DNA of 64,000 bases from Pseudonocardia sp. HH130629-09 (GTDB lineage Bacteria > Actinomycetota > Actinomycetes > Mycobacteriales > Pseudonocardiaceae): positions 558,001-622,000 of the forward strand of contig NZ_CP011868.1 in NCBI RefSeq assembly GCF_001294645.1. The letters run 5' to 3'. Shown here piece by piece: positions 13,839 through 30,454 of the stretch. The notes under the pieces were generated by a model that had not been told where the DNA came from, did not search any database, and saw nothing but the letters and a program-made list of their open reading frames with translations. Each line of letters begins with the position of its first letter. The first letter of the stretch is position 1. A program made the translations under genes and the position numbers.

Positions 13839-14978
13839 TCAGTTGCGAGACAGACGCGTGTAGCGGGCCCTGTGCTGGTCGGCGGAGCCGAACTCGTACT
13901 CGATCGCGGTGAGCCGCTTGAAGTAGTGCCCGACCGCGAGCTCCTGGGTCATCCCCATCCCGCCGTGCAGCTGGACCGCGCTCTGCCCCACGAACCGCGC
14001 CGCGCGGCTCACCGTCACCTTGGCGGCGGACACGGCCCGCGCCCGCTCGGCCGGCTCCGAGCCCAGCCGCAGCGTCGCCAGGTAGGTGGCCGAGACTGCC
14101 TGCTCCACCTCCATGTGCATGTCGACCATCCGGTGCTGCAGCGCCTGGAACGACCCGATCGGCTGCCCGAACTGCCGGCGCTCCCGCGCGTAGGCGACGG
14201 TGTCGGCGAGCACCGTCCGCAGGCATCCGACCGCCTCGGCGCACACCGCGGCGACCGCCTCGTCGAGTGCGGGCGCGAGCAGGTCCCAGCCGCGGTCCTC
14301 CACGCCGAGCAGCGCGGTGGCGGGCAGCCGGACGTCGTCGAACACGAGGTCCGCGGCGTGCCGGTCGTCGACGGTCCGGAAGGGGGCGATCCGCAGCCCG
14401 GCCGGCGGGTCGTCGACGTCGACCGGCACGGCGAACAGCGAGATCCCGTCGAGCCCGCGCCGCCCGCCCGAGGTGCGGGCGCTGACGAGCAGGTGGGTGG
14501 CCTGCGGCACCCCGGGGACGACGACCTTCGCGCCGCTCAGCACCCAGCCGCCGCCCGAGCGGCGGGCCGTGAGCGACACGTCGTGCGCGGTGTGCCCCGA
14601 TCCCGGCTCGGCCAGCGCCGGTGCGATGCGGACCGAGCCGGCGGCGACACCTTTCAGCACGTCGGTCGCGCCCGCGCGGCCGAACACGCCGCCACCGAGC
14701 ACCACCGTGTCCACATAGGGCTCGACGACGAGCGCGCGGCCGAGCTGCTCCGCGACGACCATGACCTCGACCGGGCCGCCGCCCGAGCCACCGGCGTCCT
14801 CCGGCAGTGCCGCGCCGAGGATCCCGAGGTCGTCGGCGAACGCCTGCCAGATCGCGGGCTGCCACCCGGCGTCCGACCCGGCGATCTCGCGGCTGCGCGC
14901 GAGGTCGTAGCGGGCCGCGAGGAAACCGGCGAGCGTGTCGCGGAGCTGTTCCTGCTCCGAGGTCAACTGGAAGTCCAT
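13839..14978 (-). CDS. acyl-CoA dehydrogenase, second subunit
   Basis: This is a FAD-dependent acyl-CoA dehydrogenase-fold protein of 379 aa. It shows the N-terminal helical domain, a central beta domain, and the C-terminal segment ending LHGGMGMTQELAVGHYFKRL. The gene starts directly after the stop of the upstream acyl-CoA dehydrogenase (TAGATG). Adjacent, dissimilar pairs of this kind in actinobacteria often form heteromeric alpha2beta2 enzymes acting on steroid side chains or other bulky acyl-CoAs (established for the FadE pairs of M. tuberculosis). The pair is divergent from a LysR gene across a 13-bp inverted repeat. The substrate is unknown. Confidence 0.9.
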   Translation of the reverse strand: MDFQLTSEQEQLRDTLAGFLAARYDLARSREIAGSDAGWQPAIWQAFADDLGILGAALPEDAGGSGGGPVEVMVVAEQLGRALVVEPYVDTVVLGGGVFGRAGATDVLKGVAAGSVRIAPALAEPGSGHTAHDVSLTARRSGGGWVLSGAKVVVPGVPQATHLLVSARTSGGRRGLDGISLFAVPVDVDDPPAGLRIAPFRTVDDRHAADLVFDDVRLPATALLGVEDRGWDLLAPALDEAVAAVCAEAVGCLRTVLADTVAYARERRQFGQPIGSFQALQHRMVDMHMEVEQAVSATYLATLRLGSEPAERARAVSAAKVTVSRAARFVGQSAVQLHGGMGMTQELAVGHYFKRLTAIEYEFGSADQHRARYTRLSRN

Positions 14979-16211
14979 CTAGAGCCCCAAAGCCGCCTTC
15001 GCGATGATGTTGCGCTGGATCTCGTTGCTGCCCGCGTAGATCGTCCCGGCTCGGTCGTTGAGGTAGCGCAGCGGCGCGACCGCCTGCCACTCCTCGCCGC
15101 TGAGGTAGCCGTCCGCCGGTGGGACGAAGCCCGCGACCGGGCCGCCGGGTCGGGTCGCGTGCGGCTGGTAGGCGTGCCCGCGCGGGCCGGCGGCCTCCAG
15201 CAGCAGCTCGGTCAGGGTCTGGCTGAGTTCGGTGCCGAGGATCTTCAGCATCGACGACGCCGTCCCCGGGTTGCCGCCCTCGGCCGCCGTCGAGAGGACC
15301 CGGAACTCCAGGATCTCGAAGACGTCGATCCGGATGCGGGCTTCGGCCAGCTTCGCCGCGAAGTCCGGTGAGTCGATCAGCGGGCGCCCGTCCGGGCCTG
15401 GCTGACCGCTCGCGGCGCGCGCCACCTCCCCGACCGTCACCTGCAGCCCGGGCGCGACCGCCGCGCCGCCCCGCTCGAACTCGAGCAGGTACTTCGCGAC
15501 GGTCCAGCCGTCGTCGACCGAGCCGATCACGTTCGACAGCGGCACCCGCACCCCGTCGAAGAACTCCTGGTTCTGGATCTGCTCCCCGGAGGTCATGACC
15601 AGCGGCCGGACCTCGATGCCCGGCGAGGTCATGTCGATCAGGAGGAACGTGATGCCCTGCTGCTTCTTCCCGGTCCGGCTCGTCCGGACCAGGCAGAACA
15701 TCCAGTTCGCCTCGTGGGCGTGGGTGGTCCAGATCTTGCTGCCGGTGCAGACGAGGTCGTCGCCGTCGACGACGGCGGACATCGACAGGGAGGCGAGGTC
15801 GGAGCCCGCCTCCGGCTCGGAGTACCCCTGGCAGAAGAAGATCTCGCCGCTCAGGATCCGGGGGAGGAAGTACGCCTGCTGCTCGGGCGTCCCGAACTCG
15901 ACGATCACGTGGGCGACCTGCGAGATCCCCATCGGCGACAACGGCGGCGCTCCGGCGAGGACCGACTCGCGGGAGAAGATGTAGTGCTGGGTGAGCGTCC
16001 AGTCGCAGCCGCCGTGCTCCACCGGCCAGGCCGGGGCGGCCCAGCCGCGCTCGTGGAGGACCGCCTGCCACCGCATGCTCGCCTCGTGGTCGGCGTACAC
16101 GCTCGTCATCAGCCGGCCGGCCCGGCGCAGGTCCGGGGTGAGCTTCTCGTCGAGGAACGCGCGGACCTCGTCCCGGAAGGCGAGATCGGCCGCTGACCAC
16201 TGGAGATCCAT
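14979..16211 (-). CDS. acyl-CoA dehydrogenase, first subunit
   Basis: This is an acyl-CoA dehydrogenase of 410 aa, with the ATG at 16211 chosen because the homologous N-terminus starts MDLQWSAADLAFRDEVRAFL. FAD/substrate motifs include CQGYSEPEAGSDLASL and KIWTTHAHEANWMF. The C-terminal stretch is GTIYAGSNEIQRNIIAKAALG, typical of the FadE17/FadE29-like group. It is first in a two-gene operon with the second dehydrogenase. It is probably controlled by the divergent LysR through the inverted repeat at 16243-16275, 32 bases upstream of its start. Confidence 0.92.
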   Translation of the reverse strand: MDLQWSAADLAFRDEVRAFLDEKLTPDLRRAGRLMTSVYADHEASMRWQAVLHERGWAAPAWPVEHGGCDWTLTQHYIFSRESVLAGAPPLSPMGISQVAHVIVEFGTPEQQAYFLPRILSGEIFFCQGYSEPEAGSDLASLSMSAVVDGDDLVCTGSKIWTTHAHEANWMFCLVRTSRTGKKQQGITFLLIDMTSPGIEVRPLVMTSGEQIQNQEFFDGVRVPLSNVIGSVDDGWTVAKYLLEFERGGAAVAPGLQVTVGEVARAASGQPGPDGRPLIDSPDFAAKLAEARIRIDVFEILEFRVLSTAAEGGNPGTASSMLKILGTELSQTLTELLLEAAGPRGHAYQPHATRPGGPVAGFVPPADGYLSGEEWQAVAPLRYLNDRAGTIYAGSNEIQRNIIAKAALGL

Positions 16212-16242
16212 CTCTGCTGCGCCACTCCCTCGCTCGCCGGTG

Positions 16243-16275
16243 CCCCCGCAACCTAACATGTATAGGTTGCGGGGG
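16243..16275. promoter_or_regulatory. LysR operator in the divergent promoter
   Basis: This is a perfect 13-bp inverted repeat, CCCCCGCAACCTA and TAGGTTGCGGGGG, around a 7-base spacer ACATGTA. The core CCTA-N7-TAGG recurs at 17251-17265 upstream of the SDR operon. The position between the acyl-CoA dehydrogenase operon and lysR fits a LysR recognition site; binding is inferred. Confidence 0.65.
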
Positions 16276-16317
16276 GGGAAGTGGACAAACGGCCCGCCCC
16301 GAGGCGATGCTCCGGCC

Positions 16318-17202
16318 GTGGAGGTCCGACATCTCCGGTACTTCGTGGCCGTGGCCGAGGAGGCGAGCTTCTCCCGCGCGGCCGAGCGGCTCGGCATGGC
16401 CACCTCCCCGCTCAGCAGGCGGGTGCGGGACCTGGAGGGCGAGCTCGGTGTGCAGCTGTTCGTCCGCGACTACCACCGCGTCACGCTGACCGACGCCGGC
16501 CGGGCACTCGTCGACGAGGCACGCGGGATCGTCGAGCGCGTCGACGCCCTCCCCGGGCTGCTCCCCCCGGCGGCGTCGCGGGAGACGGTCGTCACCGTCG
16601 GGACCGCGCCCGAGGTGTCGCCGGACCTGCGCTCCCGGTTCCTCACCCTGGTCCGCGCCGAGCGCCCGGGGCTCGTCCTGCGGCAGCGGCCCGCCAGCAC
16701 CGCCCCGCTCGTGCGGGCCGTGCTCAAGGGCGAGGTGGACCTGGCCTTCGTCCACGGCCGCGTCGACGACCCGCGGCTGTCGTCGGTCGTCGTGGAGTCC
16801 CAGCCGGTCCGGGTCGTCGTGGCGCAGGGGATCGGCTTCGACGGGCGGGACTCGCTGCGGCTCGCCGAGCTCGCGCACCTGCCCTACACCTCCCTGAAGG
16901 CGTCGTCGGCCCCGTTCGTCGCGCACGCGGCCGACACCCTGCTCGCCCGGCACGGTGTCGCGGGCCGGCTGCCGGTGCAGGCCGCGCACGCCGAGCTGGT
17001 GCCGATGGTCTCGGCGGGTGAGGCCTTCACGATGTGCGGTGCCCGGTTCGGGGCGACCCGCAACGTGTTCCTCCAGGAGCCGGTGCTCCTGCTCCCCTTC
17101 GAGGACGACCGCGAGCGGCTGGAGACCCACGCCGTCTGGCGCGCCGACCGGGGCGGTCTCCTGCACGGGCTCCCCGCGCTGTCGCGTCGCCTCCACGCGT
17201 GA
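16318..17202 (+). CDS. LysR family regulator
   Basis: This is a LysR-type regulator, 294 aa from the GTG at 16318 (VEVRHLRYFVAVAEEASFSR). The N-terminal winged helix (AAERLGMATSPLSRRVRDLE, about residues 21-40) is followed by a periplasmic-binding-protein-like effector domain from about residue 90 (TVVTVGTAPEV). It is divergent from the acyl-CoA dehydrogenase pair and is followed by the SDR-ALDH-synthetase genes on its own strand. Both flanking promoters carry CCTA-N7-TAGG, so it probably activates both sides when the substrate or a CoA intermediate is present (inference). Confidence 0.9.
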   Translation: MEVRHLRYFVAVAEEASFSRAAERLGMATSPLSRRVRDLEGELGVQLFVRDYHRVTLTDAGRALVDEARGIVERVDALPGLLPPAASRETVVTVGTAPEVSPDLRSRFLTLVRAERPGLVLRQRPASTAPLVRAVLKGEVDLAFVHGRVDDPRLSSVVVESQPVRVVVAQGIGFDGRDSLRLAELAHLPYTSLKASSAPFVAHAADTLLARHGVAGRLPVQAAHAELVPMVSAGEAFTMCGARFGATRNVFLQEPVLLLPFEDDRERLETHAVWRADRGGLLHGLPALSRRLHA

Positions 17203-17250
17203 CCGGATCGGTCATCCGCAGGTCGCCGACGTGGTCGTGGACACGCTTCA

Positions 17251-17265
17251 CCTAACGCCAATAGG
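17251..17265. promoter_or_regulatory. second LysR-type box
   Basis: CCTAACGCCAATAGG has the same CCTA-N7-TAGG architecture as the larger site at 16243-16275, and the two share ACCTAAC and ATAGG. It lies 79 bases before the SDR start, suitable for an activator site. Confidence 0.5.
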
Positions 17266-17343
17266 CTTCGCGCACTCGCGGTGACGGGGCCGGGGGTGTG
17301 GTCCCGCTGTGGCCCCGGCCGTTCGATCGAAGGGGTGCCGTCC

Positions 17344-18168
17344 ATGGGCAGGCTCGAGGGCAAGGTCGCTTTCATCACCGGGGCCGCGCGGGGGCAGGGG
17401 CGGGCACACGCCGTCCGGCTCGCCGAGGAGGGCGCCGCCATCGTCGCGGTGGACATCTGCGAGCAGATCCCCACCGTCTTCTACCCGATGGCGACCAAGG
17501 AGGACCTCGACGAGACCGTCGCGCTCGTCGAGGCCGCGGGCGGACGGATCGTGGCCCGGGTCGCCGACGTGCGCGACCGGGCCGCGCTGGAGGCCGCCCA
17601 CGAGGCGGGCGTCCGGGAGTTCGGGCACGTCGACACCGTGCTGCCGAACGCCGGGATCATGCCGGTGATCAACGAGGGCGAGCAGCGCCAGGCCTGGTTC
17701 GACGGCATCGACACGCTGCTCACCGGGGTCTGGCAGACGGTGGAGGTCTGCCTCCCGTCGATGATCGAACGGGACCGCGGCGGGTCGATCCTGATCACCA
17801 GCTCCGCGGCGGGCCTGTCCAGCATCGGGCTGAACACCCTGCCCGGGCAGGCGGCCTACTCCGCGGCCAAGCACGGCGTCGTCGGCCTGATGCGGCTCTA
17901 CGCCTCGCAGCTCGCGAAGCACTCCATCCGGGTTAACACCGTGCACCCCACGGGCGTGGACACGCCGATGGTCGCCAACGCGGCCTACGGCGAGTTCGTC
18001 GAGCGGTTCCCCGAGATCGCGGGCAGCCCGAACTACCAGAACCCGATGCCGGTCCCGCTCATCGAGCCCGTCGACGTCAGCAACGCGCTGGTCTACCTGG
18101 CCTCCGACGAGGCCCGCTACGTCACCGGCGTGACCTTCCCGGTCGACGCCGGCTACCTCAACCGCTGA
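17344..18168 (+). CDS. mycofactocin-coupled SDR oxidoreductase
   Basis: This is a short-chain dehydrogenase of 274 aa that probably oxidises an alcohol with tightly held NAD, re-oxidised through mycofactocin. The Rossmann motif is TGAARGQGRAHAVRLAEEGA. The AVDIC loop plus the 10-12 residue insertion around FYPMATKEDLDETVALVEA is the signature I associate with the mycofactocin-coupled SDR family (TIGR03971). The catalytic Ser (ITSSAAG) and YSAAKHG are present. The ATG at 17344 was chosen because the upstream in-frame part is not conserved. It is first gene of an operon with an aldehyde dehydrogenase and an acyl-CoA synthetase. Confidence 0.88.
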   Translation: MGRLEGKVAFITGAARGQGRAHAVRLAEEGAAIVAVDICEQIPTVFYPMATKEDLDETVALVEAAGGRIVARVADVRDRAALEAAHEAGVREFGHVDTVLPNAGIMPVINEGEQRQAWFDGIDTLLTGVWQTVEVCLPSMIERDRGGSILITSSAAGLSSIGLNTLPGQAAYSAAKHGVVGLMRLYASQLAKHSIRVNTVHPTGVDTPMVANAAYGEFVERFPEIAGSPNYQNPMPVPLIEPVDVSNALVYLASDEARYVTGVTFPVDAGYLNR

Positions 18169-18180
18169 AAGGAAGACGTC

Positions 18181-19635
18181 GTGAACGTCCGTGACGAACT
18201 GCTGATCGACGGCGAGTGGCGCAAGCCGGCGTCGTCGGTACGGATCCCCGTCGTGTCGCCCTCCACCGACGAGGTGATCGGCGAGGCCCCCGACGCCAAC
18301 GCCGACGACGTCGACGCCGCCGTGCGCGCGGCCCGCCGCTCGTTCGACGAGGGCGTGTGGCGGCTGCGGCCGGTCGCCGAGCGGGCCGAGGTGCTCGAGC
18401 GCGCGCTCGGCCTGATCGAGCCGAAGCTCGACGAGATCGGCAGGCTGGTGACCGCGGAGATGGGGCTCCCCACCGCCTTCGCCGGGATGCAGATCCCCGG
18501 CGCACTGGCCGTCGGGAAGTACTTCCTCGACGTGGCACGCGACAGCCCGCTCTCCGAGGTCCGGCAGACCATGTACGGGCCGGCGGCCGTCGTGAAGGAA
18601 CCGGTCGGCGTCGTCGCCTCGATCGCGCCGTGGAACGGCCCGTTCAACATGGCCGTCTCGAAGATCTGGCCGGCGCTGGTCAGCGGGTGCAGCGTGGTCT
18701 ACAAGCCCGCGCCCGAGACCCCGCTCGACGCGTACTACATCGCCGAGGCGCTGGTCGAGGCCGGTGTCCCGGCCGGGGTGTTCAACTACGTCACCGGCGA
18801 CCGCGACGCCGGGCGTGCCCTCGTCGCACACCCGGGTGTGGACAAGGTCAGCTTCACCGGGTCAACGGCGGCCGGTCGCCAGATCGGGCAAGAGTGCGGC
18901 GGGAGCTTCAAGCGCCTGCAGCTGGAGCTCGGCGGGAAGTCCGCGGCGATCGTGCTCGACGACGCCGACCTCACCACGACCATGACCGGCCTCGCGACCG
19001 GCTCGTTCTTCAACACCGGCCAGGTCTGCGCCGCCTACAGCCGGGTGCTGGTGCCGAGCGGCCGCTACGACGAGGTCGTCGGCGCCCTCGTGGCCACCGC
19101 CGAGTCGTTCGTGGTCGGCGACCCCTTCGACCCGGCAACGACCATGGGCCCGCTGGTGTCGAAGCGCCAGCAGGAGCGGGTGCTCGGCTACGTCGAGGCG
19201 GGCAAGGCCGAGGGCGCCTCGGTCGCCACCGGCGGCGGGGTGCCGGCCGGGCTGGAGAAGGGCGCCTTCATCCAGCCCACCGTCTTCACCGGCGTCGAGA
19301 ACGGGATGCGGATCGCGCAGGAGGAGATCTTCGGCCCGGTCGCGTCGGTCATCCGCTACGAGACCGTCGACGAGGCGATCGCAATCGCGAACGACTCCGA
19401 GTACGGGCTGCACGGCGCCGTGTTCACCGCCGACCCGCAGCGGGCGGCCGACGTCGCCCGCCGGGTCCGGACCGGCACCTTTAGCGTCAACTCCTTCACC
19501 TACAACACCGAGGCGCCGTTCGGCGGGGTGAAGTGCTCGGGCGTCGGCCGGGACACCGGTGCGGAGGCCGTCGAGTCGTACTACGAGCTGAAGACCGTGA
19601 ACCTCACCGAGGACATGACCCCGCTGTTCTCCTGA
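18181..19635 (+). CDS. aldehyde dehydrogenase
   Basis: This is an NAD(P)-dependent aldehyde dehydrogenase of 484 aa, oxidising an aldehyde to the acid. The cofactor and catalytic motifs are all visible: FTGSTAAGRQIG, the Glu in LELGGKSA (about residue 257), the nucleophile Cys in NTGQVCAA (about residue 291) and EEIFGPV (about residue 384). The GTG start follows AAAGGAAG and lies 12 bases after the SDR stop. Position between an alcohol dehydrogenase-type SDR and an acyl-CoA synthetase suggests the middle step of alcohol to aldehyde to acid to CoA ester. Confidence 0.94.
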   Translation: MNVRDELLIDGEWRKPASSVRIPVVSPSTDEVIGEAPDANADDVDAAVRAARRSFDEGVWRLRPVAERAEVLERALGLIEPKLDEIGRLVTAEMGLPTAFAGMQIPGALAVGKYFLDVARDSPLSEVRQTMYGPAAVVKEPVGVVASIAPWNGPFNMAVSKIWPALVSGCSVVYKPAPETPLDAYYIAEALVEAGVPAGVFNYVTGDRDAGRALVAHPGVDKVSFTGSTAAGRQIGQECGGSFKRLQLELGGKSAAIVLDDADLTTTMTGLATGSFFNTGQVCAAYSRVLVPSGRYDEVVGALVATAESFVVGDPFDPATTMGPLVSKRQQERVLGYVEAGKAEGASVATGGGVPAGLEKGAFIQPTVFTGVENGMRIAQEEIFGPVASVIRYETVDEAIAIANDSEYGLHGAVFTADPQRAADVARRVRTGTFSVNSFTYNTEAPFGGVKCSGVGRDTGAEAVESYYELKTVNLTEDMTPLFS

Positions 19636-19641
19636 CACTCC

Positions 19642-19669
19642 CCGGGGCGCCGGTCCGCCGGCGCCCCGG
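19642..19669 (+). terminator. GC-rich hairpin after the aldehyde dehydrogenase gene
   Basis: A 12-bp perfect stem (GGGGCGCCGG arm plus two C-G pairs) closes a TCCG loop just after the stop, without a U-tract. It could be an attenuating terminator or an mRNA-stabilising stem between this gene and the synthetase 34 bases downstream. Confidence 0.5.
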
Positions 19670-19702
19670 ACCCGTCCGTCCCACCACGCCCTGGAGGATC
19701 CC

Positions 19703-21226
19703 GTGAGCGGCACCGTCGTCGACGCCCTGACCTGGTGGGTGCGCACGGTCCCGGACCATCCCGCCGTCGACCTCGACGGCGACGTCCTGACCTACGCCGA
19801 CCTCGACGCCTGGGCCGACGGCGTCGCGGCGGTCCTGCGCGGGCACGGCGTGGCGCGGGGCGACCGCGTCGGGATCGTGGGCACCAACAGCCTCGAGTGG
19901 TGCGTCGCGGCGGTCGCCGCCTGGAAGACCGGGGCCGTGGTCTGCGGGTTCAACCAGCGCTTCCTCGCCGCCGAGCTCGGGGCACTGGTGTCGCTCTGCG
20001 AGCCCGCTGTCGTGTTCGGCGACGCCGCCCACCTGCCGCTGCTGGAGGAGGTGCGGCGCTCCGGGCCGGAGTTCACCGTCCTCGGGCTCGACGACGCCGT
20101 CACGGGCGCCCGCGGCGGCGGGCACCAGCCGGCCCCGGCGTTCGGGGCCGAGCCCGACGACCCGACCTCGATCGTCTTCACCAGCGGCACGACGGGCACG
20201 CCGAAGGGCGTCGTCTTCACCCACCGCACGATCGCCGGGATCATGCACGAGTGGTCCCTGGGCGAGCAGGTCGGGCCCAACGACCTGCGCGTCCTGCTCG
20301 TCCTGCCGATGTTCACCGCGGCGGGCGTCGTGTGGGGGCTCTCCCGGAGCCTCGTGCAGGGCGGGACGATGTACCTGCAGCCGGGCTTCGACCCGCCCCG
20401 GGCGCTGGAGGTGCTGCAGGAAGCCCGGATCACCACCTTCACCGGCCCGCCGATCCTCTTCGAGCAGATCTCGCGGGTGCCCGGGTTCGAGCGGGCACGG
20501 CTGGACCACCTCACGACCGCGTGGGTCGGCGGTGCCAGGGTCCCGGTGCCGCTGCTCGAGAAGTGGCGCCCGCGCGGGGTCGCGCTCCGCCAGCTCTACG
20601 GGCAGACCGAGATCGGCGGCACCGCCACCGCGATGTCGGCGGAGGGAGCGCTGCGGCATCCCGACAAGTGCGGCTGGGGCGGGCCCTTCACCCGCATCCG
20701 GGTCGTCGATCCGGACGGCCGGGACTGCGCGGTGGGCGAGGTCGGGGAGATCGTCATGCGCGGGCCCGGCATGTTCCCCGGCTACTGGCGCAACGAGGAG
20801 GCGACGAAGCAGGCGCTGCGGGGCGGCTGGCTGCACACCGGCGACCTCGGGACGCTCGACGCCGAGGGCCTGCTCACCTACGTCGACCGGATGGGCGAGA
20901 TGATCAACTCCGGCGGCCTGAAGATCTCGCCGGCCGAGCTGGAGACGGTGATCGCCCAGGTCCCCGGGGTGATCGAGGTGGCCGTCGTCCCGGTGCCCGA
21001 CGCGAAGTTCGGCGAGACGTCGGCCGCCGTCGTCCACGTCGACGGGGACCTGGCCCCGGCCGACCTGGTCGCGTTCTGCAACGAGCGCCTCGCCGACTAC
21101 AAGGTGCCCCGCTACGTGATCACCCACGACGGGCCGCTGCCGCGGATGGCGAGCGGGAAGATCGCCAAGCGCGACCTGCGTGCGGTCTACGCCGACGCGC
21201 CCGAGCGCTTCCCGAAGGTCCGCTGA
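19703..21226 (+). CDS. acyl-CoA synthetase (AMP-forming)
   Basis: This ANL-superfamily acid-CoA ligase of 507 aa activates a carboxylic acid to its CoA thioester with ATP. Motifs in order are the P-loop TSGTTGTPKGVVFTH (about residue 160), YGQTEIGG (about residue 300), GDLGTLD (about residue 380) and the C-terminal PRMASGKIAKRDL, whose Lys completes adenylation. The GTG start has GGAGG 6 bases upstream. It ends 4 bases before the convergent stop of the lipocalin-like gene. It probably takes the acid made by the SDR and aldehyde dehydrogenase. Confidence 0.93.
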   Translation: MSGTVVDALTWWVRTVPDHPAVDLDGDVLTYADLDAWADGVAAVLRGHGVARGDRVGIVGTNSLEWCVAAVAAWKTGAVVCGFNQRFLAAELGALVSLCEPAVVFGDAAHLPLLEEVRRSGPEFTVLGLDDAVTGARGGGHQPAPAFGAEPDDPTSIVFTSGTTGTPKGVVFTHRTIAGIMHEWSLGEQVGPNDLRVLLVLPMFTAAGVVWGLSRSLVQGGTMYLQPGFDPPRALEVLQEARITTFTGPPILFEQISRVPGFERARLDHLTTAWVGGARVPVPLLEKWRPRGVALRQLYGQTEIGGTATAMSAEGALRHPDKCGWGGPFTRIRVVDPDGRDCAVGEVGEIVMRGPGMFPGYWRNEEATKQALRGGWLHTGDLGTLDAEGLLTYVDRMGEMINSGGLKISPAELETVIAQVPGVIEVAVVPVPDAKFGETSAAVVHVDGDLAPADLVAFCNERLADYKVPRYVITHDGPLPRMASGKIAKRDLRAVYADAPERFPKVR

Positions 21227-21230
21227 GGGC

Positions 21231-22147
21231 TCACGACCCGGTGCCGTGCTCGTGGGCGGACAGCCACGCCCGGTGCTCGGGCGATGGGGAGGCACGCTCC
21301 CGGACGGCGAGGTGCCCGCTGCCCAGCCGCCCGCCGCAGCGCCAGGTCCCGTAGGTCTCGGTGGCGAAGTGCCCACCGTCGTGGGTGGACACCCCCGAGA
21401 GGTCGGTCTCGCCGGTGAACTCGTAGCCGTGCCCGGAGTCGGTCCACACCTGCAGCCGGGCGGAGAGCGGGGTGTGCCCGTCCTCCGCGATCGTCATCCG
21501 GTCGGCCACCCGGACGACGCCGTGCCGCACGCCGCCGTCGACGACGTAGCCGTAGTCCCCGCGGCCGCGCCGGTCGCTGGTCATGGCGTAGACGACGGCG
21601 AACAGGTCCTCCCGAAGGTCAGGTGCCCCCAGCGGTAGGTCGCGGCGAGGTCGCCGTAGTCGCGCGGGCCCCAGGAGTGGTCGTGGAAGGCGAACGCGGT
21701 GGCGGTGCCGCCGTCCGGGAACGTCGCGGCGACCCGCCCGAAGACCTCGTAGTGACCGGTCCCGGGGGAGCGGTAGTCCGAGATGGTGTTCCCGCGGGGC
21801 GCCAGCGGCTCGGTGAACCCGGTGAAGGCCAGCTCCACCTGCGGCAGGCGGGTCGTGTACTCGCGCAGCGGGACCGTGGTGCTCACGTCCAGCGGGCCGG
21901 CCCGGAACTCCGCGGGGTCGTAATCGTCCATCGGGACGTTGAGCGACTGGTAGCGCTCCAGCACCTCGCCGCCGCGGGCGACCCAGCTCTGCACACATGC
22001 GCGCCCGCGTGCGGGCTGGAAGTCGACGTGGTGGTAGCTGCCGGAGCGGGTGAGCGGGTCGTACCAGGAGGTAAGCCAGGACTCCTGCCAGCCCGGCACG
22101 TCACCGTCGGGGTGGTGCCGGTGGTGGTCCTCGGGGGTGTAGCTCAC
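21231..22147 (-). pseudogene. lipocalin-like conserved protein, frameshifted
   Basis: I cannot name this family with certainty. It resembles uncharacterised actinobacterial proteins with an AttH/CrtC-like lipocalin fold, rich in W, Y and beta-strand patterns (SYHHVDFQPARGRACVQSW; FHDHSWGPRDYGDLAATY). The N-terminal frame starts at GTG 22147, overlapping the phosphotransferase stop. At about 21613 one G is missing from a GGGGAG run, and the remainder (EDLFAVVYAMTSDRRGRGDYG to the stop at 21231) continues in the next frame. It is third gene of the SRPBCC-phosphotransferase operon. The shift may be a sequencing error. Confidence 0.6.
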
Positions 22148-23196
22148 GCGGGGTCCTCCAGACGCGCGTCGATCCGGTCCAGCAGCCTGCGGACGCTGCG
22201 GGGGTCGTCGTCGCCGGGGACCGGCAGCCCGGCGCGGGCGCGGTCGGCGAACGCCCCGGCCCGCAGCAGCGCGAGCTGGAACAGGGCGAACACCTCGTGC
22301 CAGCGCAGGTCCACGACCGGCAGGCCGGTGCCTGCCCGCCAGCGGTCGAGCGTCTCGTCGCGCGTCCCGAGCCCGGGCAGGCGGTCGACGCCGGCGTCGG
22401 TGCTGTGGTTGCGGTCGAACATCAGCCACCAGGCGAGGTCGACCGTCGGGCCGCTGAGCGAGACCATCTCCCAGTCCAGCACCGCGGTGCACCGGGTCCC
22501 GGCGAACAGCATGTTGCCCAGCCGGGCGTCGCCCCAGGACAGGCCGGCGGGCGCGTCGGCCGGGACGTGCGCGCGCACCCAGTCGCGGACGCCCGCCAGC
22601 GGCCCGAGCGGCGCCCGCTCACCGACCCACTCCGCCATCCGCTCCCAGTACCGCACCAGCGGCTCCGGCCCCGGCTCCAGGAAGTCCACGGTGGACACGT
22701 CGGCCCGGTGCAGCCGGCACATCTGGTCGAGCGCGTCCTGCCAGAGCGCGCGCCGCGCGTCCGCGGTCAGGTCGTGCAGCGGACCCGCGGTGTTGTAGTT
22801 CGGGTAGTCGGGCGGGACGAACCCGGCCACCCGCTCGGTCACCAGGAACGGGGCACCGAGGACCTCGCCGGTGGGGTCGACGCCGTACACGGCGGGCACC
22901 GGCACCGCGGTGTGCGCGGCGACCCACCGCAGCGCCGCCGCCTGCCGCTCCAGGTCGGGATCGAGGTAGGCGGCCGCCTCCGGGACCGTCAGCCGCACGA
23001 CGATCCCGCGGGTGCCCCGGGTGGTGCGGCACTCGGCCAGGACCGTCTCGTTCGCGGTGCCCGCGCCCTCGGCCGGGCGGGCCCGCTCGACGGCCAGGAC
23101 GCCGTCGAGGGCACCGTGCGACCGCAGCCAGCCACCCAGCCGCCGTTGCAGGTCGTCGAGGTCGCGGCCGGTGCGGCGGAGCAGGTCGACGGCCAC
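22144..23196 (-). CDS. APH/ACAD10-type phosphotransferase
   Basis: This is an aminoglycoside-phosphotransferase-fold kinase of 350 aa. The catalytic loop is LSWGDARLGNMLF (a WGD variant of HGD) and the metal-binding motif is VLDWEMVSLSGPTVDLAWWL. The ATP-binding part includes VVRLTVPEAA. Proteins of this group in acyl-CoA catabolic clusters resemble the kinase part of ACAD10/ACAD11 and LvaA of levulinate catabolism, which phosphorylate 4-hydroxyacyl-CoA. With acyl-CoA dehydrogenases nearby, such a role is plausible here rather than antibiotic resistance (inference). It starts 1 base after the SRPBCC stop and overlaps the next gene. Confidence 0.85.
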   Translation of the reverse strand: MAVDLLRRTGRDLDDLQRRLGGWLRSHGALDGVLAVERARPAEGAGTANETVLAECRTTRGTRGIVVRLTVPEAAAYLDPDLERQAAALRWVAAHTAVPVPAVYGVDPTGEVLGAPFLVTERVAGFVPPDYPNYNTAGPLHDLTADARRALWQDALDQMCRLHRADVSTVDFLEPGPEPLVRYWERMAEWVGERAPLGPLAGVRDWVRAHVPADAPAGLSWGDARLGNMLFAGTRCTAVLDWEMVSLSGPTVDLAWWLMFDRNHSTDAGVDRLPGLGTRDETLDRWRAGTGLPVVDLRWHEVFALFQLALLRAGAFADRARAGLPVPGDDDPRSVRRLLDRIDARLEDPA

Positions 23197-23197
23197 G

Positions 23198-23695: not shown

Positions 23696-23741
23696 GGCCG
23701 GTCTCCTCGCGTCGTCGCCGGGGAACGACCGCAGTGTACGA

Positions 23742-23768
23742 GACAAACGACGAAGTCCGTCATCTGTC
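23742..23768 (-). promoter_or_regulatory. interrupted palindrome and promoter of the SRPBCC operon
   Basis: The structure GACA-N3-GACG-N5-CGTC-N3-TGTC is symmetric over 27 bp. On the minus strand TGACGG and, 18 bases on, TACACT could be the -35 and -10 elements, with the palindrome covering the -35 and spacer. This fits a repressor operator; the regulator is not identified. Confidence 0.45.
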
Positions 23769-23836
23769 CGGGGACGGTCGCCCCGGGACACCGGATCGCT
23801 GCGCCGGTCGCGCGGGGGACAGGCCCGCGGGCGGGA

Positions 23837-24952
23837 TCAGGAGGAGTGGACCACCACGCTGCGCAGGGTGCTGCCGTCGTACATCGCGGCGTACCCCTCG
23901 TTGATCTCGTCGAGGGTGAAGGTGCGGGTGACGAGCTCGTCGAGCTTGAGTGCGCCCGCGCGGTAGAGGTCGAGCAGCGCCGGGACGGCCTGCGCCGGTG
24001 ACCAGGAGCCGTAGAGGCAGCCCTGGATGCGCTTCTGGTACATGGGCAGCTGGGCGAGGTCGAGCGGGACCGCGCCGGCGTCGCGGCCGGGAACCGCGGT
24101 GGCGACCACGGTGCCGTCCTTCCGCACGGCGTCGAAGGCCTGGGCGATGTAGGTGCCCTTGAGCGTGCTGGTGGTCACGACCGCGACGTCCGCGCCCTGC
24201 CCGTTGGTCAGCGAGCGGGCGAGCTCGGTGGCCTCCTCCATCGACCCCAGCGCGTCGGTCGCGCCGAAGGACAGTGCGCTCGCGCGCCGGTTCGGCAGGG
24301 GATCGACGGCGACCACGCGGACGGCACCGGCGTGCGCGGCACCCTGCACGGCGTTGATCCCGAGCCCTCCGGTCCCCATGACGATCACGACGTCGCCGGG
24401 CCGGACACCACCCGCGTTGACGGCGGAGCCCCAGCCGGTCGGTACCCCGCAGCCGACCAGGGCCGCGGTGGTCAGCGGGATGTCCGTGCCGATGGGGATG
24501 CAGCAGTGCTCGGGTACGACACCGAACTCGGAGAACGTGCCCACGAAGGACGCCTGCGCCACGTCGCGGCCCTGGTGGTGCATCCGGAAGGTGCCGTCGA
24601 GCATGGCGCCGCGCCCGATCAGGGCCCCCAGGTCACAGAGGTTCTGCATCCCGCTCGCGCACCAGCGGCAGCGACCGCAGCCCGGCAGGAACGAGGTGAC
24701 CACGTGGTCACCGACCTTCAGGGTGGTCACCCCCGGGCCGACGGCCTCGACGACGCCCGCCCCCTCGTGCCCGCCGCAGTAGGGCAGCACCTGGGTGGCG
24801 CTGTCCCCGGTCGCGTGGTGCTCGTCGGAGTGGCAGAGCCCGGACGCCGCGTAGCCCAGCAGGACCTCGTTCGCACGGGGCCCGTCGATGTCCACCTCGT
24901 GGACCTCCCACTTGCCGGGGACCTCCATCAGCAGTGCGGCCCTGCTCTTCAT
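23837..24952 (-). CDS. NDMA-dependent (mycofactocin-type) alcohol dehydrogenase
   Basis: This zinc-dependent MDR alcohol dehydrogenase of 371 aa is of the nicotinoprotein type, with bound NAD re-oxidised by NDMA in vitro and by mycofactocin in vivo. Seen are the catalytic zinc ligands Cys in GLCHSDEHHATGD and His in GGHEGAGVVE. The structural zinc cysteines lie in PGCGRCRWCASGMQNLC, and the Rossmann motif is GTGGLGINAVQGA. The whole N-terminus (KSRAALLMEVPGKWEVHEVD) fits TIGR03989. The ATG overlaps the stop of the upstream acyl-CoA synthetase (ATGA), so the two enzymes are co-expressed. Confidence 0.93.
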   Translation of the reverse strand: MKSRAALLMEVPGKWEVHEVDIDGPRANEVLLGYAASGLCHSDEHHATGDSATQVLPYCGGHEGAGVVEAVGPGVTTLKVGDHVVTSFLPGCGRCRWCASGMQNLCDLGALIGRGAMLDGTFRMHHQGRDVAQASFVGTFSEFGVVPEHCCIPIGTDIPLTTAALVGCGVPTGWGSAVNAGGVRPGDVVIVMGTGGLGINAVQGAAHAGAVRVVAVDPLPNRRASALSFGATDALGSMEEATELARSLTNGQGADVAVVTTSTLKGTYIAQAFDAVRKDGTVVATAVPGRDAGAVPLDLAQLPMYQKRIQGCLYGSWSPAQAVPALLDLYRAGALKLDELVTRTFTLDEINEGYAAMYDGSTLRSVVVHSS

Positions 24953-26484
24953 CGCGACTCCTCGCGGACTCGGTGGTGGGTGTGGAGGACGTCGGGGTAC
25001 AGATCGCGGACCCGGCGGCGGGCGATCTTCCCGCTGGCCATGCGGGGCAGCGGTTCTGCCCGGTGGATCACGTAGCGGGGCACCTTGTAGCCCGCCAGCC
25101 TGTTCCGGCAGTGGGCGACGACGGCGGCGGCGTCGGGGACCGCGTCGCCGTGGACGACGGCGGCCGGGGTCTCGCCGAACCGGTCGTCGTCGACCGGGAT
25201 CACGCAGACCTCGTCGACCCCCGGCAGTCCGGCGATCACGTTCTCGATCTCGGAGGGGGCGATGTTGTAGCCCCCGGAGATGATGAGGTCCTTCGTCCGG
25301 TCGACCATGCGGATCAGTCCGGACCCGTCGGCCACCCCGAGATCGCCGGTCCGGAACCAGCCGTCGCGCCATGCGGCCGCGGTGGCCTCGGGCTTGCGCC
25401 AGTAGCCGGGGGTGATGGAGGGGCCGCGGGCGACGATCTCGCCCTCCTCACCGGGCCTGCAGTCGCTGCCGTCCTCGCGTACGACACGGTGCGGGGTGAA
25501 CACCGAACCCCGCCCGATCGCCTCCGGATGGGCGACCGCCTCCTCCACCGGGTTCATCGACGACAGCCCGTGCAGCTCGGTCATCCCGTAGGACTGCCGG
25601 AGCACGACACCCTTCTCCAGCCACAGCCGGAGGTTGTCGGGGGAGACCCGGGCACCGGCCACGGTGGCGAGCCGGACGCAGGACAGGTCGGCGTCGGCGA
25701 ACTCCGGGACCGCCGACATCTGCTCGAACAGCAGCGGGACCCCGCAGTCGACCTCGACGCGCTGCTCGGCGATCCGCCGCAGCATCGCCACGGCGTCGAA
25801 CCCGCGCTCGTAGAAGAGGGTCATGCCGCGGGTGAGCGGGTGCAGCACGTGCCAGGGCAGTCCCGGCATGCCCGACATGGAGAGGACGTAGATGATCCGC
25901 CCGCCGGGGCGCATCACCGGCTCGGTCACGGCGAACTCGGTCACGAAGCTGACGAACCCGCGGTGGGTGATCGTGACGTCCTTCGGCTCCGAGGTGGTCC
26001 CGGAGGTGTAGACGATGACGGCGACGTCGTCGGGTGACACCGCAGGCGGGGGCAACGGGTCGGTGGGCGGGGAGTCCGGCGCAGGGCGCTGCTCCGCGAA
26101 CGACTCCATCGACAGCAGCCGGATCGGCGCGTCACCGATCGCCTCGCTCATCGCCGGGCGGACGGTCGCGTCGGCGACGACGGCGACGGGTTCGGCGTCG
26201 CCGAGCTGGTAACGGAGCTCGGCCGCGGTGAAGCGGTTGTTGAACGGAACCGCGACGGCGCCGAGTTTGAGCGCGCCGATGGCGGAGACGATCCACTCGA
26301 GCTGGTTGGCGCCGCCGAATCCGACGCGATCCCCGGCGCGTACGCCGGTGCCGGCGAGCCGGCGGGCGGCGTCGTCGGTCCAGCGGTCGAGGACCGCGTA
26401 GCCGACCTCGTCGGTGCCGTCGAAGACGACGGCCGGTCTGTTCGGGGTGGTGCGCGCCCACCATCGGACGCCGTCGGTGATCAT
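24949..26484 (-). CDS. acyl-CoA synthetase (AMP-forming), second copy
   Basis: This ANL-superfamily ligase of 511 aa starts at the ATG at 26484, preceded by GGGAG. Motifs are YTSGTTSEPKDVTITH (P-loop), YGMTELHGLSS, GDLGVADGSG and PRMASGKIARRRV with the catalytic Lys. It is related to but clearly different from the synthetase at 19703, so it may act on another intermediate. It is first in an operon with the NDMA-type alcohol dehydrogenase. The promoter TTGACC-N17-TAAGGT and a TetR-type box lie 143-172 bases upstream. Confidence 0.92.
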   Translation of the reverse strand: MITDGVRWWARTTPNRPAVVFDGTDEVGYAVLDRWTDDAARRLAGTGVRAGDRVGFGGANQLEWIVSAIGALKLGAVAVPFNNRFTAAELRYQLGDAEPVAVVADATVRPAMSEAIGDAPIRLLSMESFAEQRPAPDSPPTDPLPPPAVSPDDVAVIVYTSGTTSEPKDVTITHRGFVSFVTEFAVTEPVMRPGGRIIYVLSMSGMPGLPWHVLHPLTRGMTLFYERGFDAVAMLRRIAEQRVEVDCGVPLLFEQMSAVPEFADADLSCVRLATVAGARVSPDNLRLWLEKGVVLRQSYGMTELHGLSSMNPVEEAVAHPEAIGRGSVFTPHRVVREDGSDCRPGEEGEIVARGPSITPGYWRKPEATAAAWRDGWFRTGDLGVADGSGLIRMVDRTKDLIISGGYNIAPSEIENVIAGLPGVDEVCVIPVDDDRFGETPAAVVHGDAVPDAAAVVAHCRNRLAGYKVPRYVIHRAEPLPRMASGKIARRRVRDLYPDVLHTHHRVREESR

Positions 26485-26592
26485 TCGATTCTCCCGGTGG
26501 TGGTCAGGAGAGCGCGGAGCCGTCCGCGCACGTGCGGGAGGGACGACCGGCGTCCGCACTCCTGTGTGCGGTGACGACCTACAGAGCGGAGC

Positions 26593-26613
26593 GCGTTCCG
26601 GATCGGAACGCGG
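26593..26613. promoter_or_regulatory. 21-bp palindrome in the synthetase leader
   Basis: CGCGTTCCG-GAT-CGGAACGCG has perfect 9-bp arms. It lies between the promoter at 26628-26656 and the synthetase start, so it could be a second operator (roadblock) or an RNA hairpin in the leader. Confidence 0.45.
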
Positions 26614-26626
26614 GCGAATGATTCTT

Positions 26627-26656
26627 ACCTTATGGCGGTAGGTAGTACTGGTCAAG
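26627..26656 (-). promoter_or_regulatory. promoter with TetR-type operator
   Basis: On the minus strand a near-consensus promoter reads TTGACC (26656-26651), a 17-bp spacer, then TAAGGT (26633-26628). The -10 and spacer are covered by the element TACCTTATGGCGGTAGGTA (26627-26645), which recurs near tetR and upstream of the truncated aldehyde dehydrogenase gene. It drives the synthetase-alcohol dehydrogenase operon. Confidence 0.65.
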
Positions 26657-26674
26657 ACATGTGTGTGTTCCGGT

Positions 26675-27292
26675 TCACCCGGCGTTGTCGATACCGCGCA
26701 GGAACGTGCGGATCGACTCCGCCCACAGTGCCTCCGGCGCCAGCCGGTTGGCGGCCACGGCCCGCGCCATCGCAGGCTCTTCCAGGGGGTCGACGTGCGG
26801 GAACGTCTCCCTGCGGGTCCCCGGTCGTTTCATCGCCTCGGTCAGGGCCGCGCCCAGCGTGAAGCGGTCCAGCGCGTCGAGGACCAGGACCTGCAGGTGC
26901 GTGGGGACTCCGGCGTCCGCCAGCAGTCGTGCCGACACCTCGTAGACCGGTGCGAGCACCTCGCGCGGCATGAACTCCAGCAGTACGGGCGCCGCGTTGG
27001 CGTGCCGGAGCACGGTTCGCCGAAAGTTGAGGCTCTGGGTGACGAGGTACTCGATCCAGTGCCCGGCGTCGCGCTCGCGCGGACGCGGGGTCTCCATCAC
27101 GATCGCCCGTGCGACCTCCTCCAGGATCGAGGCCTTGTCCGGGAAGTGGTAGTAGAGCGACGGCGCCTGCACCTCCATGTCCCGGGCCAGCCGCTTCAGG
27201 CTGAACGCCTCCAGGCCCTCCGCGTCGATGATCGCCAGGGCGGCGGAGACGATGGACGCGGGACTCAGCAACGGCTGGGCGGGACGCGGCAT
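26675..27292 (-). CDS. TetR family regulator
   Basis: This is a TetR regulator of 205 aa from the ATG at 27292 (MPRPAQPLLSPASIVSAALAIIDAEG); a GTG six codons upstream is also in frame. The DNA-binding domain is FSLKRLARDMEVQAPSLYYHFPDKASILEEV, and the C-terminal part resembles the TetR_C class of proteins linked to catabolism. It is divergent from the SDR at 27401 and follows the promoter of the acyl-CoA synthetase operon. Boxes of the form ACCTTAYGRCRRTAGGTA at both sides are its probable operators. Confidence 0.9.
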   Translation of the reverse strand: MPRPAQPLLSPASIVSAALAIIDAEGLEAFSLKRLARDMEVQAPSLYYHFPDKASILEEVARAIVMETPRPRERDAGHWIEYLVTQSLNFRRTVLRHANAAPVLLEFMPREVLAPVYEVSARLLADAGVPTHLQVLVLDALDRFTLGAALTEAMKRPGTRRETFPHVDPLEEPAMARAVAANRLAPEALWAESIRTFLRGIDNAG

Positions 27293-27334
27293 GGCAGGAG
27301 TATGGCGCACCGTTCTGGATCGAACCGCGAGACA

Positions 27335-27353
27335 TACCTATTGTCGTAAGGTG
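27335..27353. promoter_or_regulatory. TetR-type operator, copy 2
   Basis: The complement reads CACCTTACGACAATAGGTA and matches the site at 26627 in ACCTTA, the central G/C positions and TAGGTA. It lies in the 108-bp gap between tetR and the divergent SDR gene, so it probably controls both. Confidence 0.55.
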
Positions 27354-27400
27354 AAGCGGCCCGTCGCGGCCGCACGCCGGTCGTCGACGAGGGAGTCCTC

Positions 27401-28153
27401 ATGGGTGTGCTGGACGGGCGGATCGCCCTGGTGACCGGCGGGTCGTCCGGGATCGGGCTCGCCTCGGCGGTAGCGCTGGCGGCCGCGGGCGCCGACGTCG
27501 GCATCGCCGACCTGGACGCGGACGGTGGTGAGGCGGCAGTGGCCCGGATCAGGGCCCACGGGCGCCGCGCGGTGTTCCAGCAGGTCGACGCGACGGACGA
27601 GACGCAGGTCGCGGGCGTCGTCGGCCAGGTGGTGGCCGAGCTGGGCGGACTCGACCTGGCGGTGAACAACGTCGGCGACGGGGAGCTCGGGCGCACCGTG
27701 ACGACGACGTCGCTGGAGAGCTGGAACGCGATCATCGGCCGGTCCCTGACCTCGACCTGGCTCGCCATGAAGTACGAGATCCCGGCGATGGCGCAGCGCG
27801 GTGGCGGGGCGATCGTGAACATGTCGTCCAGTGCCGGGGTCAGTCCTCAGACCACGGCCTCGCCCGCCTACGCCGCGGCCAAGGCCGGCGTCGTGCACCT
27901 GACCCGCTACACCGCGCGGCAGTACGCGGACCAGGGGATCCGGGTCAACGCGGTGGCTCCGGGGCTGACGCTGACGCCACGGGTCGAGCAGTGGTTCGCG
28001 CCCGACGCGATCGCGGGCGAGGTCGCCGACAGTCAGTTCGTGCACCGCGCCGCGGCGCCGGAGGAGGTCGCTGCGGCGGTGGTCTACCTGTGCTCGCCGG
28101 CGGCCGCGATGGTCACCGGGCACACCCTGCCGGTCTCCGGCGGGGTCCGGTGA
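27401..28153 (+). CDS. SDR family oxidoreductase
   Basis: This classical short-chain dehydrogenase/reductase of 250 aa is FabG-like in layout. It has the Rossmann TGGSSGIGLASAVALAAAGA, the NNVGDG segment, the catalytic Ser in NMSSSAG, the YAAAKAG motif and C-terminal GHTLPVSGG. The Asp in IADLD suggests preference for NAD. The ATG follows GGGAG. It probably oxidises a 3-hydroxyacyl-CoA or an alcohol of the same pathway and is regulated by the divergent TetR. A promoter for a further gene follows its stop directly. Confidence 0.92.
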   Translation: MGVLDGRIALVTGGSSGIGLASAVALAAAGADVGIADLDADGGEAAVARIRAHGRRAVFQQVDATDETQVAGVVGQVVAELGGLDLAVNNVGDGELGRTVTTTSLESWNAIIGRSLTSTWLAMKYEIPAMAQRGGGAIVNMSSSAGVSPQTTASPAYAAAKAGVVHLTRYTARQYADQGIRVNAVAPGLTLTPRVEQWFAPDAIAGEVADSQFVHRAAAPEEVAAAVVYLCSPAAAMVTGHTLPVSGGVR

Positions 28154-28160
28154 CCGGCGG

Positions 28161-28191
28161 TTGACAGATATTAAACTATACCCGTAAGGTA
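28161..28191 (+). promoter_or_regulatory. promoter with TetR-type operator, copy 3
   Basis: TTGACA (28161-28166) and TAAGGT (28185-28190) are spaced by 18 bp and form a strong promoter. The complement of 28173-28191 begins TACCTTACGG and matches the other two boxes at about 13 of 19 positions. The promoter reads toward the aldehyde dehydrogenase fragment at 28449, but a MITE now lies between them. Confidence 0.55.
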
Positions 28192-28225
28192 AAAATCATC
28201 GCCCGGTTGGCGCATCTGTGCCAAT

Positions 28226-28390
28226 GAGCCTTTTTCAACCTGCCGTTCCGGCAGCTCAGGGGCCTGGTTGTGTGGGTGCAGACGCCGAGCTAGCGAGCCG
28301 GTGACCTGTGCAGCTGTGGTCAGAGCAGTTGCGCTGCAACCTTCGCGATCTCCTGACGCAGAAGCTCGCTGGTCAGGTTGAAAAAGGCTC
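28226..28390 (-). mobile_element. 165-bp MITE, copy 2
   Basis: It is identical base for base to the reverse complement of 8355-8519. It has the same 17-bp terminal inverted repeats and its own target duplication AAT (28223-28225, 28391-28393). It lies between a TetR-controlled promoter and the start of the aldehyde dehydrogenase fragment, 58 bases before the GTG at 28449. Its hairpin potential could alter leader transcription. Confidence 0.9.
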
Positions 28391-28448
28391 AATGATCTGC
28401 GCGGCGAATTCTTCTCACCCGCGATTGTCCGACGAGGGGGAGTGTCTC

Positions 28449-28683
28449 GTGAGTCTCGAGCTCTACATCGACGGTGGGTGGATCGCGTCCGCCGCCACCG
28501 AGTGGATCGAGGTGCTCGACCCGGCGACCGGGAAGTCGCTCGCCGACGTGCCGGCCGGGGATGCCGCCGATGTCGACCGTGCCGTCCGCGCGGCTCGCCG
28601 GGCGTTCCCGGACTGGGCGGCGACCGCACCGCCGGAGCGGGCGGCGTTCGTCTCCCGCCTCGCGGACGAGCTAGCCCGGACTC
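28449..28683 (+). pseudogene. aldehyde dehydrogenase, 5' fragment cut by IS1380
   Basis: The N-terminal 78 residues of an aldehyde dehydrogenase remain (VSLELYIDGGWIASAATEWIEV, then VLDPATGKSLADVP, VDRAVRAARRAFPDWAATAP). The GTG follows GGGGGAG. The frame is lost at the left end of the IS1380 element at about 28684; cofactor and catalytic regions are missing and no 3' part is seen beyond the IS. It was probably the third TetR-controlled transcription unit of the pathway. Confidence 0.85.
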
Positions 28684-30359: not shown

Positions 30360-30431
30360 TCACCAGGGTTAGCGCCGGGTGTCTGTTCGCCGGCTCACAC
30401 CGTGCGGGAACGGACACGTTTCGTCACTCTA

Positions 30432-30454
30432 TGGTGACGCAGCGCGATGGTGCG
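30432..30454 (+). repeat. 23-bp conserved element, copy 1
   Basis: The element starts TGGTGACGCAGCG and ends ATGGTGCG, and matches 50953-50975 at 21 of 23 positions. It lies in a 260-bp stretch without a gene between the IS1380 end and the damaged sugar transferase. Upstream CGTCAC and the element's GTGACG can pair around TCTATG. Confidence 0.45.

What the first reader, a model, noticed from the sequence alone, without database searches (positions are those of the whole stretch)
13839..28683. Mycofactocin-linked catabolic island with a possible hydroxyacyl-CoA kinase route
The island combines an NDMA-type alcohol dehydrogenase, a mycofactocin-coupled SDR, aldehyde dehydrogenases, two acid-CoA ligases, a paired acyl-CoA dehydrogenase, another SDR and an ACAD10/LvaA-like phosphotransferase. 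Levulinate catabolism (LvaABCDE) uses such a kinase to phosphorylate a 4-hydroxyacyl-CoA. The set here could oxidise a diol or hydroxy-alcohol to a gamma-hydroxyacyl-CoA and remove the hydroxyl by phosphorylation, with SRPBCC and lipocalin-like helpers. I know of no described pathway with this exact set.
Basis: inference. Interest (0 to 1): 0.72.

Follow-up and report, generated by a model that had tools for sequence, protein, structure and literature searches.

The report
Kinase-lyase pair in a catabolic island
A soil actinobacterium carries a gene cluster for breaking down a bulky alcohol whose kinase, with the neighbouring gene of no assigned function, resembles a recently solved enzyme pair that strips a hydroxyl group off sterols by first putting a phosphate on it.

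The parts
10189..11376 (-). cytochrome P450; flank shared with sister G046 (97%), not seen in the G037 stretch examined
   Evidence: PF00067; tblastn 96.7% in L042, no hit in L043
11373..12536 (-). MFS transporter, shared with sister G046 (91%)
   Evidence: PF07690
12869..13558 (+). TetR-type regulator, shared with sister G046 (87%)
   Evidence: PF00440
13839..14978 (-). acyl-CoA dehydrogenase, small-subunit type
   Evidence: best NCBIfam PimD, below cut-off; best PDB sequence hits 7szv and 6wy8 chain A
14979..16211 (-). acyl-CoA dehydrogenase, large-subunit type
   Evidence: best NCBIfam PimC, below cut-off; best PDB sequence hits 4x28 and 6wy8 chain B
16318..17202 (+). LysR-type regulator
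   Evidence: PF00126, PF03466
17344..18168 (+). mycofactocin-coupled SDR (carveol dehydrogenase group)
   Evidence: TIGR03971 over cut-off; 7 of 10 PDB matches are named carveol dehydrogenase, though the best, 3sx2, is not
18181..19635 (+). aldehyde dehydrogenase, complete
   Evidence: PF00171 over the whole profile
19703..21226 (+). acyl-CoA ligase 1
   Evidence: PF00501, PF13193
21231..22147 (-). DUF7065/DUF7064 protein, probable phosphate lyase; frameshifted in this genome, intact in G037 and G046; its GTG start overlaps the kinase stop
   Evidence: fold of homologue L087
22144..23196 (-). APH-fold alcohol kinase, WGDARLGN motif, 25-HSK/Rv3168 clade
   Evidence: PF01636
23198..23695 (-). 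SRPBCC protein, last gene of the module shared with both sisters
   Evidence: PF10604
23837..24952 (-). NDMA-dependent alcohol dehydrogenase (second module)
   Evidence: TIGR03989 over cut-off; 83-84% homologues in L193 and L195
24949..26484 (-). acyl-CoA ligase 2 (second module)
   Evidence: PF00501; 81-82% homologues in G024, G061 and G030
26675..27310 (-). TetR-type regulator (second module)
   Evidence: PF00440; about 80% in L193 and L195
27401..28153 (+). SDR 2 (second module)
   Evidence: PF13561; about 77% in L193 and L195
28308..28703 (+). aldehyde dehydrogenase, N-terminal stump only
   Evidence: PF00171 positions 1-69 of 461; a complete ALDH stands at this place in L193
28796..30220 (+). 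DDE transposase after the stump
   Evidence: PF13701

Best explanation
The core of the finding is a two-gene ATP-dependent dehydration module. The kinase (22144-23196) phosphorylates a hydroxyl, probably tertiary or otherwise unreactive, of a bulky isoprenoid-like alcohol. The adjacent DUF7065/DUF7064 protein (21231-22147) eliminates the phosphate to leave a C=C bond, as 25-hydroxysteroid kinase and 25-phosphosteroid lyase do in Sterolibacterium. The other core genes (mycofactocin-coupled SDR, aldehyde dehydrogenase, CoA ligase, paired acyl-CoA dehydrogenase) oxidise another alcohol of the molecule to a CoA thioester and start beta-oxidation. Shown: families, kinase clade, fold of a lyase homologue, conserved Asp motif, recurrent pairing, sister synteny. 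Inferred: lyase activity, substrate class, order of steps. In this strain the lyase gene is frameshifted as assembled, so the module may be inactive here although intact in two sister species.
Against: The island's lyase subfamily is far from 25-PSL: 15% identity, its own profile reaches 25-PSL only at E 0.12, profile-profile probability 85% over 116 columns, and 25-PSL itself hits neither DUF in Pfam. The fold match ties with AttH and is shared by hydratases and pericyclases, so fold alone does not give lyase chemistry. 51 of 80 kinase loci show no such gene. Of the 19 kinases found beside DUF7065 genes 14 have HGD motifs; the 3 WGDAR cases are the window and its two sisters. The distance correlation ignores shared species history. 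In G030 and G024 the ACAD pair, ALDH and ligase 1 stand together without the LysR, mycofactocin SDR or lyase genes, and the only kinase trace, in G030, is a broken remnant, so kinase-lyase pair and steroid-like region are not firmly tied. The small ACAD has a Glu next to the column compared, so it may well be an ordinary dehydrogenase of any acyl-CoA. The lyase gene is broken in this genome.
Confidence: 0.58

Rival explanations
1. One reading: an LvaA/ACAD10-type kinase phosphorylates a 4-hydroxyacyl-CoA and the island's acyl-CoA dehydrogenase eliminates the phosphate.
For: Same superfamily (PF01636); CoA ligases and an ACAD pair stand nearby; ACAD11 and 3dxp do match the kinase profile.
Against: Another clade and different motifs; island ACADs lack the Asp and match other ACAD types; an HGDFRIDN kinase with an Asp-type ACAD sits elsewhere in the genome. 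Limit: LvaA's and LvaC's own sequences were never in hand; 3dxp and 9o56 stand for LvaA by resemblance.
Confidence: 0.1
2. The DUF7065/7064 protein is an AttH/CrtC-like hydratase, isomerase or carrier, and the kinase only activates, traps or detoxifies an alcohol.
Against: Recurrent direct pairing with a kinase, which a lyase explains best; 25-PSL is the only PDB sequence match of the wider family.
Confidence: 0.2
3. Decaying remnant: the module has no present function in this strain.
For: Frameshift in the lyase gene, ALDH stump beside a transposase, broken kinase remnant in P. terrae; a near-identical kinase in only two other genomes of the 149 searched, own included.
Against: The other core genes are open and 94-99.8% identical to the sisters' proteins; a single frameshift can be an assembly error (inference).
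Confidence: 0.12

Closest known systems
25-hydroxysteroid kinase (25-HSK, PDB 9fsg, 9ft5) of Sterolibacterium denitrificans
   Different: 28% identity; 25-HSK works in anaerobic sterol degradation, and PMC8449060 saw no lyase candidate near its gene (passages)
25-phosphosteroid lyase (25-PSL, PDB 9fzn, 9g2i, 9g4c)
   Same: Fold of a homologue, Asp in the (R/H)DxSW motif, wider family that pairs with kinases
   Different: 15% identity, another subfamily; frameshifted in this genome
Rv3168 (PDB 3ats)
   Different: The entry title gives no function; function not tested here
LvaABCDE levulinate pathway and ACAD10/ACAD11
   Same: APH-fold kinase used to remove a hydroxyl by phosphorylation
   Different: Other kinase clade by 3dxp/9o56 as stand-ins; phosphate is eliminated by an ACAD-family enzyme with a catalytic Asp (PMC11342911, PMC12440821, passages), not seen in the island ACADs
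Carveol dehydrogenase group of mycofactocin SDRs (TIGR03971)
   Same: Island SDR passes the cut-off; 7 of 10 PDB matches are named carveol dehydrogenase
   Different: Best PDB match is 3sx2, named putative ketoacyl reductase; substrate here unknown

Membership tests
LvaA/ACAD10-11 hydroxyacyl-CoA kinases | Falls in the HxD (HGD[YF]-type) clade | tested here: not met
   WGDARLGN; midpoint-rooted tree with 3dxp and 9o56 as stand-ins, their clade support 1.0, WGDAR clade 0.81; LvaA itself not in the tree
LvaA/ACAD10-11 hydroxyacyl-CoA kinases | Partner acyl-CoA dehydrogenase with catalytic Asp | tested here: not met
   Aligned position is Phe in the small and Ala in the large ACAD, by comparison with an Asp-type ACAD elsewhere in the genome; that this column is LvaC's Asp is inferred
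LvaA/ACAD10-11 hydroxyacyl-CoA kinases | Phosphorylates 4-hydroxyacyl-CoA | not testable with these tools
   needs an enzyme assay
LvaA/ACAD10-11 hydroxyacyl-CoA kinases | Small LvaB partner protein | not tested
   not searched for
25-HSK/Rv3168 clade of alcohol kinases | Sequence clade and motif | tested here: met
25-HSK/Rv3168 clade of alcohol kinases | Fold closer to 25-HSK than to 3dxp | tested here: met
25-HSK (steroid C25 kinase) | Phosphorylates a steroid tertiary alcohol | not testable with these tools
   needs an enzyme assay
25-PSL-like phosphate lyases | Two-barrel fold | tested here: met
25-PSL-like phosphate lyases | Asp of the (R/H)DxSW motif | tested here: met
   that this Asp is catalytic is inferred from the Asn in 9g4c
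25-PSL-like phosphate lyases | Direct sequence similarity of the island subfamily to 25-PSL | tested here: inconclusive
   E 0.12; profile-profile E 6.1e-6, probability 85%; E 4.6e-93 only with the wider family
25-PSL-like phosphate lyases | Intact open frame in this genome | tested here: not met
   intact in both sisters
Mycofactocin-coupled SDR TIGR03971 | Score over the curated cut-off | tested here: met
   368.2 bits, cut-off 300
NDMA-dependent alcohol dehydrogenase TIGR03989 | Score over the curated cut-off | tested here: met
   489.8 bits, cut-off 440
Mycofactocin producer | mftC in the genome | tested here: met
   655.6 bits, cut-off 265; other mft genes not tested
Pimeloyl-CoA dehydrogenase PimC/PimD | Score over the curated cut-offs | tested here: not met
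   320.6 of 623.85 and 328.2 of 652.7 bits

The most novel reading that the evidence does not exclude
DUF7065/DUF7064 proteins are phosphate lyases that, paired with APH-fold kinases of two different clades, form a widespread two-gene ATP-dependent dehydratase for unreactive alcohols, used well beyond anaerobic sterol degradation (Actinobacteria, Gamma-, Alpha- and Deltaproteobacteria, Spirochaetes by record title) and here joined to mycofactocin-linked oxidation of an isoprenoid alcohol other than the 25-hydroxysterol.
Probability: 0.4. Interest if true: 0.72.

Novelty: new variant of a known kind. Interest (0 to 1): 0.55.

Why it matters
Tertiary alcohols block beta-oxidation, and the only worked example of removing one by kinase plus lyase that I found is anaerobic sterol degradation, whose lyase gene was still called unknown or putative in the passages read (PMC8449060, PMC11061730). 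If the pairing seen here is what it looks like, two Pfam domains of unknown function gain a testable activity, and phosphotransferase genes named after antibiotic kinases become candidates for catabolic dehydration.

Tried and rejected
LvaA/LvaC assignment: rejected on clade, motif and ACAD residue, with 3dxp, 9o56 and ACAD11 as stand-ins for LvaA. One single conserved island: rejected, homology with both sisters stops at about 23.8 kb. ALDH remainder after the transposase: by eye not in the three + frames of 30.2-32.2 kb. Transposon ends: 14 inverted pairs in window 28500-30600; a few short ones bracket the transposase gene (for example 14 nt at 86%, 28567-28580 with 30541-30554), none convincing. 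Steroid ring degradation in this genome: one KshA_C match, 63.8 bits, over the cut-off of 23.3, which fits a steroid substrate but does not fix it. P450 as a steroid or vitamin D hydroxylase: of 215 PDB sequences matched the best are OxyB-type; vitamin D hydroxylases are among the 60 shown, further down, so no inference was drawn. An NRPS remnant lies nearby. The whole gene set elsewhere: of 18 related loci compared with the island proteins (tblastn, E 1e-15) none shows all of it; the other loci were compared by family only. Literature: no paper holds DUF7064 or DUF7065 or PDB codes 9FSG, 9FT5, 9FU5, 9O56; searches found no report of 25-PSL beyond PMC11061730 and PMC8449060. The library holds open-licence papers only, so a paper behind the 2026 PDB entries may exist. 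Rows dropped: L038 (same genome as L076) was left out of the statistics, and L070 (cut-off fragment, below the score limit) never entered them; 5 of 10 own APH proteins were left out of the kinase tree. The DUF search behind started from the island-type protein. Absence of ACAD11 from the 50 rows is not taken as evidence.
Full report
What is there. The window lies at G000:C1:558001-622000 of a 6.3 Mb genome. The genus is Pseudonocardia: the same-genus genome G030 has a contig of the same length, 214,619 bases, as a named Pseudonocardia terrae record with the same kinase remnant. Gene calling by codon-position GC and Pfam/NCBIfam scans give, in order: P450, MFS, TetR, small and large acyl-CoA dehydrogenase (ACAD), LysR, mycofactocin-coupled SDR, aldehyde dehydrogenase (ALDH), CoA ligase 1, DUF7065/DUF7064, APH-type kinase, SRPBCC, NDMA-dependent ADH, CoA ligase 2, TetR, SDR2, an ALDH stump and a DDE transposase. 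The mftC gene is in the genome but some 550-570 kb away.

Two modules. In sister species G037 and G046 the stretch from the ACAD pair to the SRPBCC gene is syntenic, with protein identities of 94-99.8% (the ACAD pair of G037 by DNA, 97%). DNA homology (98%) stops at about window 23,770-23,803, just before the ADH. In G046 it extends left over TetR, MFS and P450 at 87-97%. mftC is 97 and 99% identical in the same two genomes, so the core is not unusually similar. The second module, with ADH, ligase 2, TetR and SDR2 at 77-84%, occurs in G030 and G024. In G030 an EcKL-type (ecdysteroid kinase-like) gene lies between ADH and ligase 2, and a complete ALDH stands where the window has a stump. The ACAD pair, ALDH and ligase 1 also occur in G030 and G024, but there LysR, mycofactocin SDR and lyase gave no hit between or beside them. 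The large ACAD is found at 76% or more in 7 of 62 genus genomes, own included; the kinase near-identical only in the window's genome and two others of 149.

Against the LvaA route. The genome has ten APH genes. One with motif HGDFRIDN stands beside an ACAD with Asp in a YDGPSE stretch. The island ACADs have Phe (small, with Glu one residue before) and Ala (large) in that column. They match 4x28 and 6wy8 (large) and 7szv and 6wy8 (small) best among PDB sequences; that 4x28 and 6wy8 are two-subunit steroid enzymes is recalled, not from a call. PMC12440821 (passages) states that LvaC shares a predicted catalytic aspartate with ACAD10/11.

The lyase candidate. The neighbour's GTG start overlaps the kinase's TGA stop, and the kinase starts 1 nt after the SRPBCC stop. 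In this genome DUF7065 and DUF7064 lie in two frames; in both sisters they lie in one. It is the only DUF7064 match of the genome. An iterated search among 87 loci (80 of them the best kinase relatives) found such genes in 33; with a profile of 23 of them, 29 of the 80 have one and 26 have it within 600 bp of the kinase. Searching DUF7065 in 298 genomes gave 26 with a match; of the 30 loci kept, 19 have an APH-like kinase hit within the 1.5 kb flanks. Two pairs of rows are the same place, so 17 of 28 distinct places. Of the 19 hits, 14 have HGD motifs, 3 WGDAR (the window and its sisters) and 2 (L150, L151) are partial without a motif. So the two protein families meet repeatedly, not only in this clade.

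Co-divergence. Over 26 kinase-lyase pairs the two distance matrices correlate at r 0.87, and over 28 pairs, with the island (G046 copies) and 25-HSK/25-PSL added, at 0.83; 0 of 5000 permutations reached either value. This does not remove shared species history.

Substrate class. In P. terrae G030, contig C111, the ACAD pair, ALDH and ligase 1 (77-91%) and the second module lie within the 100 kb examined. Among 30 proteins chosen from it and scanned are five Mce4_CUP1/MlaD proteins, three ChsH2-type OB-fold proteins, three Thiolase_C_1 proteins, four Rieske oxygenases, two enoyl-CoA hydratases, a luciferase-like and an FMO-like protein. This looks like catabolism of a steroid or another polycyclic isoprenoid, and the window's genome has one KshA_C match over cut-off (63.8 bits). 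Against it: there the kinase is a frame-broken remnant and the lyase gave no hit.

Mechanism, with status. Step 1, oxidation of an alcohol by the mycofactocin SDR (family shown, substrate unknown). Step 2, aldehyde to acid to CoA ester (families shown). Step 3, alpha,beta-dehydrogenation by the ACAD pair (family shown, bulky substrate inferred). Step 4, phosphorylation of a remaining hydroxyl (kinase clade shown). Step 5, elimination to an alkene by the DUF7065/7064 protein (inferred from fold of a homologue, motif and pairing). The order of steps is not known.

Verdict. It is a new variant of a known kind, possibly silent in this strain.

Noticed in passing
G000:C1 about 701911-704022 (L138:5912-8023): A separate HGDFRIDN kinase beside an acyl-CoA dehydrogenase with Asp in a YDGPSE stretch: the genome's better candidate for LvaA/LvaC-type 4-hydroxyacyl-CoA chemistry.
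   Followed up: partly
L193:10865-11893: In P. terrae an ecdysteroid kinase-like (EcKL) gene lies between the ADH and ligase 2 homologues, so a second kind of alcohol kinase is tied to these modules.
   Followed up: no
L146, L147, L148, L156-L163, L166: DUF7065 genes next to HGDYR- or HGDFR-type kinases in genomes related to the window's: the same pairing with another kinase clade.
   Followed up: partly
L034:11735-19275: In sister G046 a Rieske oxygenase, ligase, TetR, ALDH and molybdopterin oxidoreductase lie beyond a transposase on the SRPBCC side; ligase, TetR and ALDH homologues lie at the same side in G037.
   Followed up: no
window 4803-8036: A Mu-type transposase, a short carrier-protein plus condensation-domain fragment of an NRPS, and a DDE transposase: decayed mobile or biosynthetic DNA left of the island.
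   Followed up: no
window 30395-44711: Two sugar transferases, dTDP- and UDP-sugar enzymes and a DUF222/HNH gene on the right side, a polysaccharide-type region.
   Followed up: no
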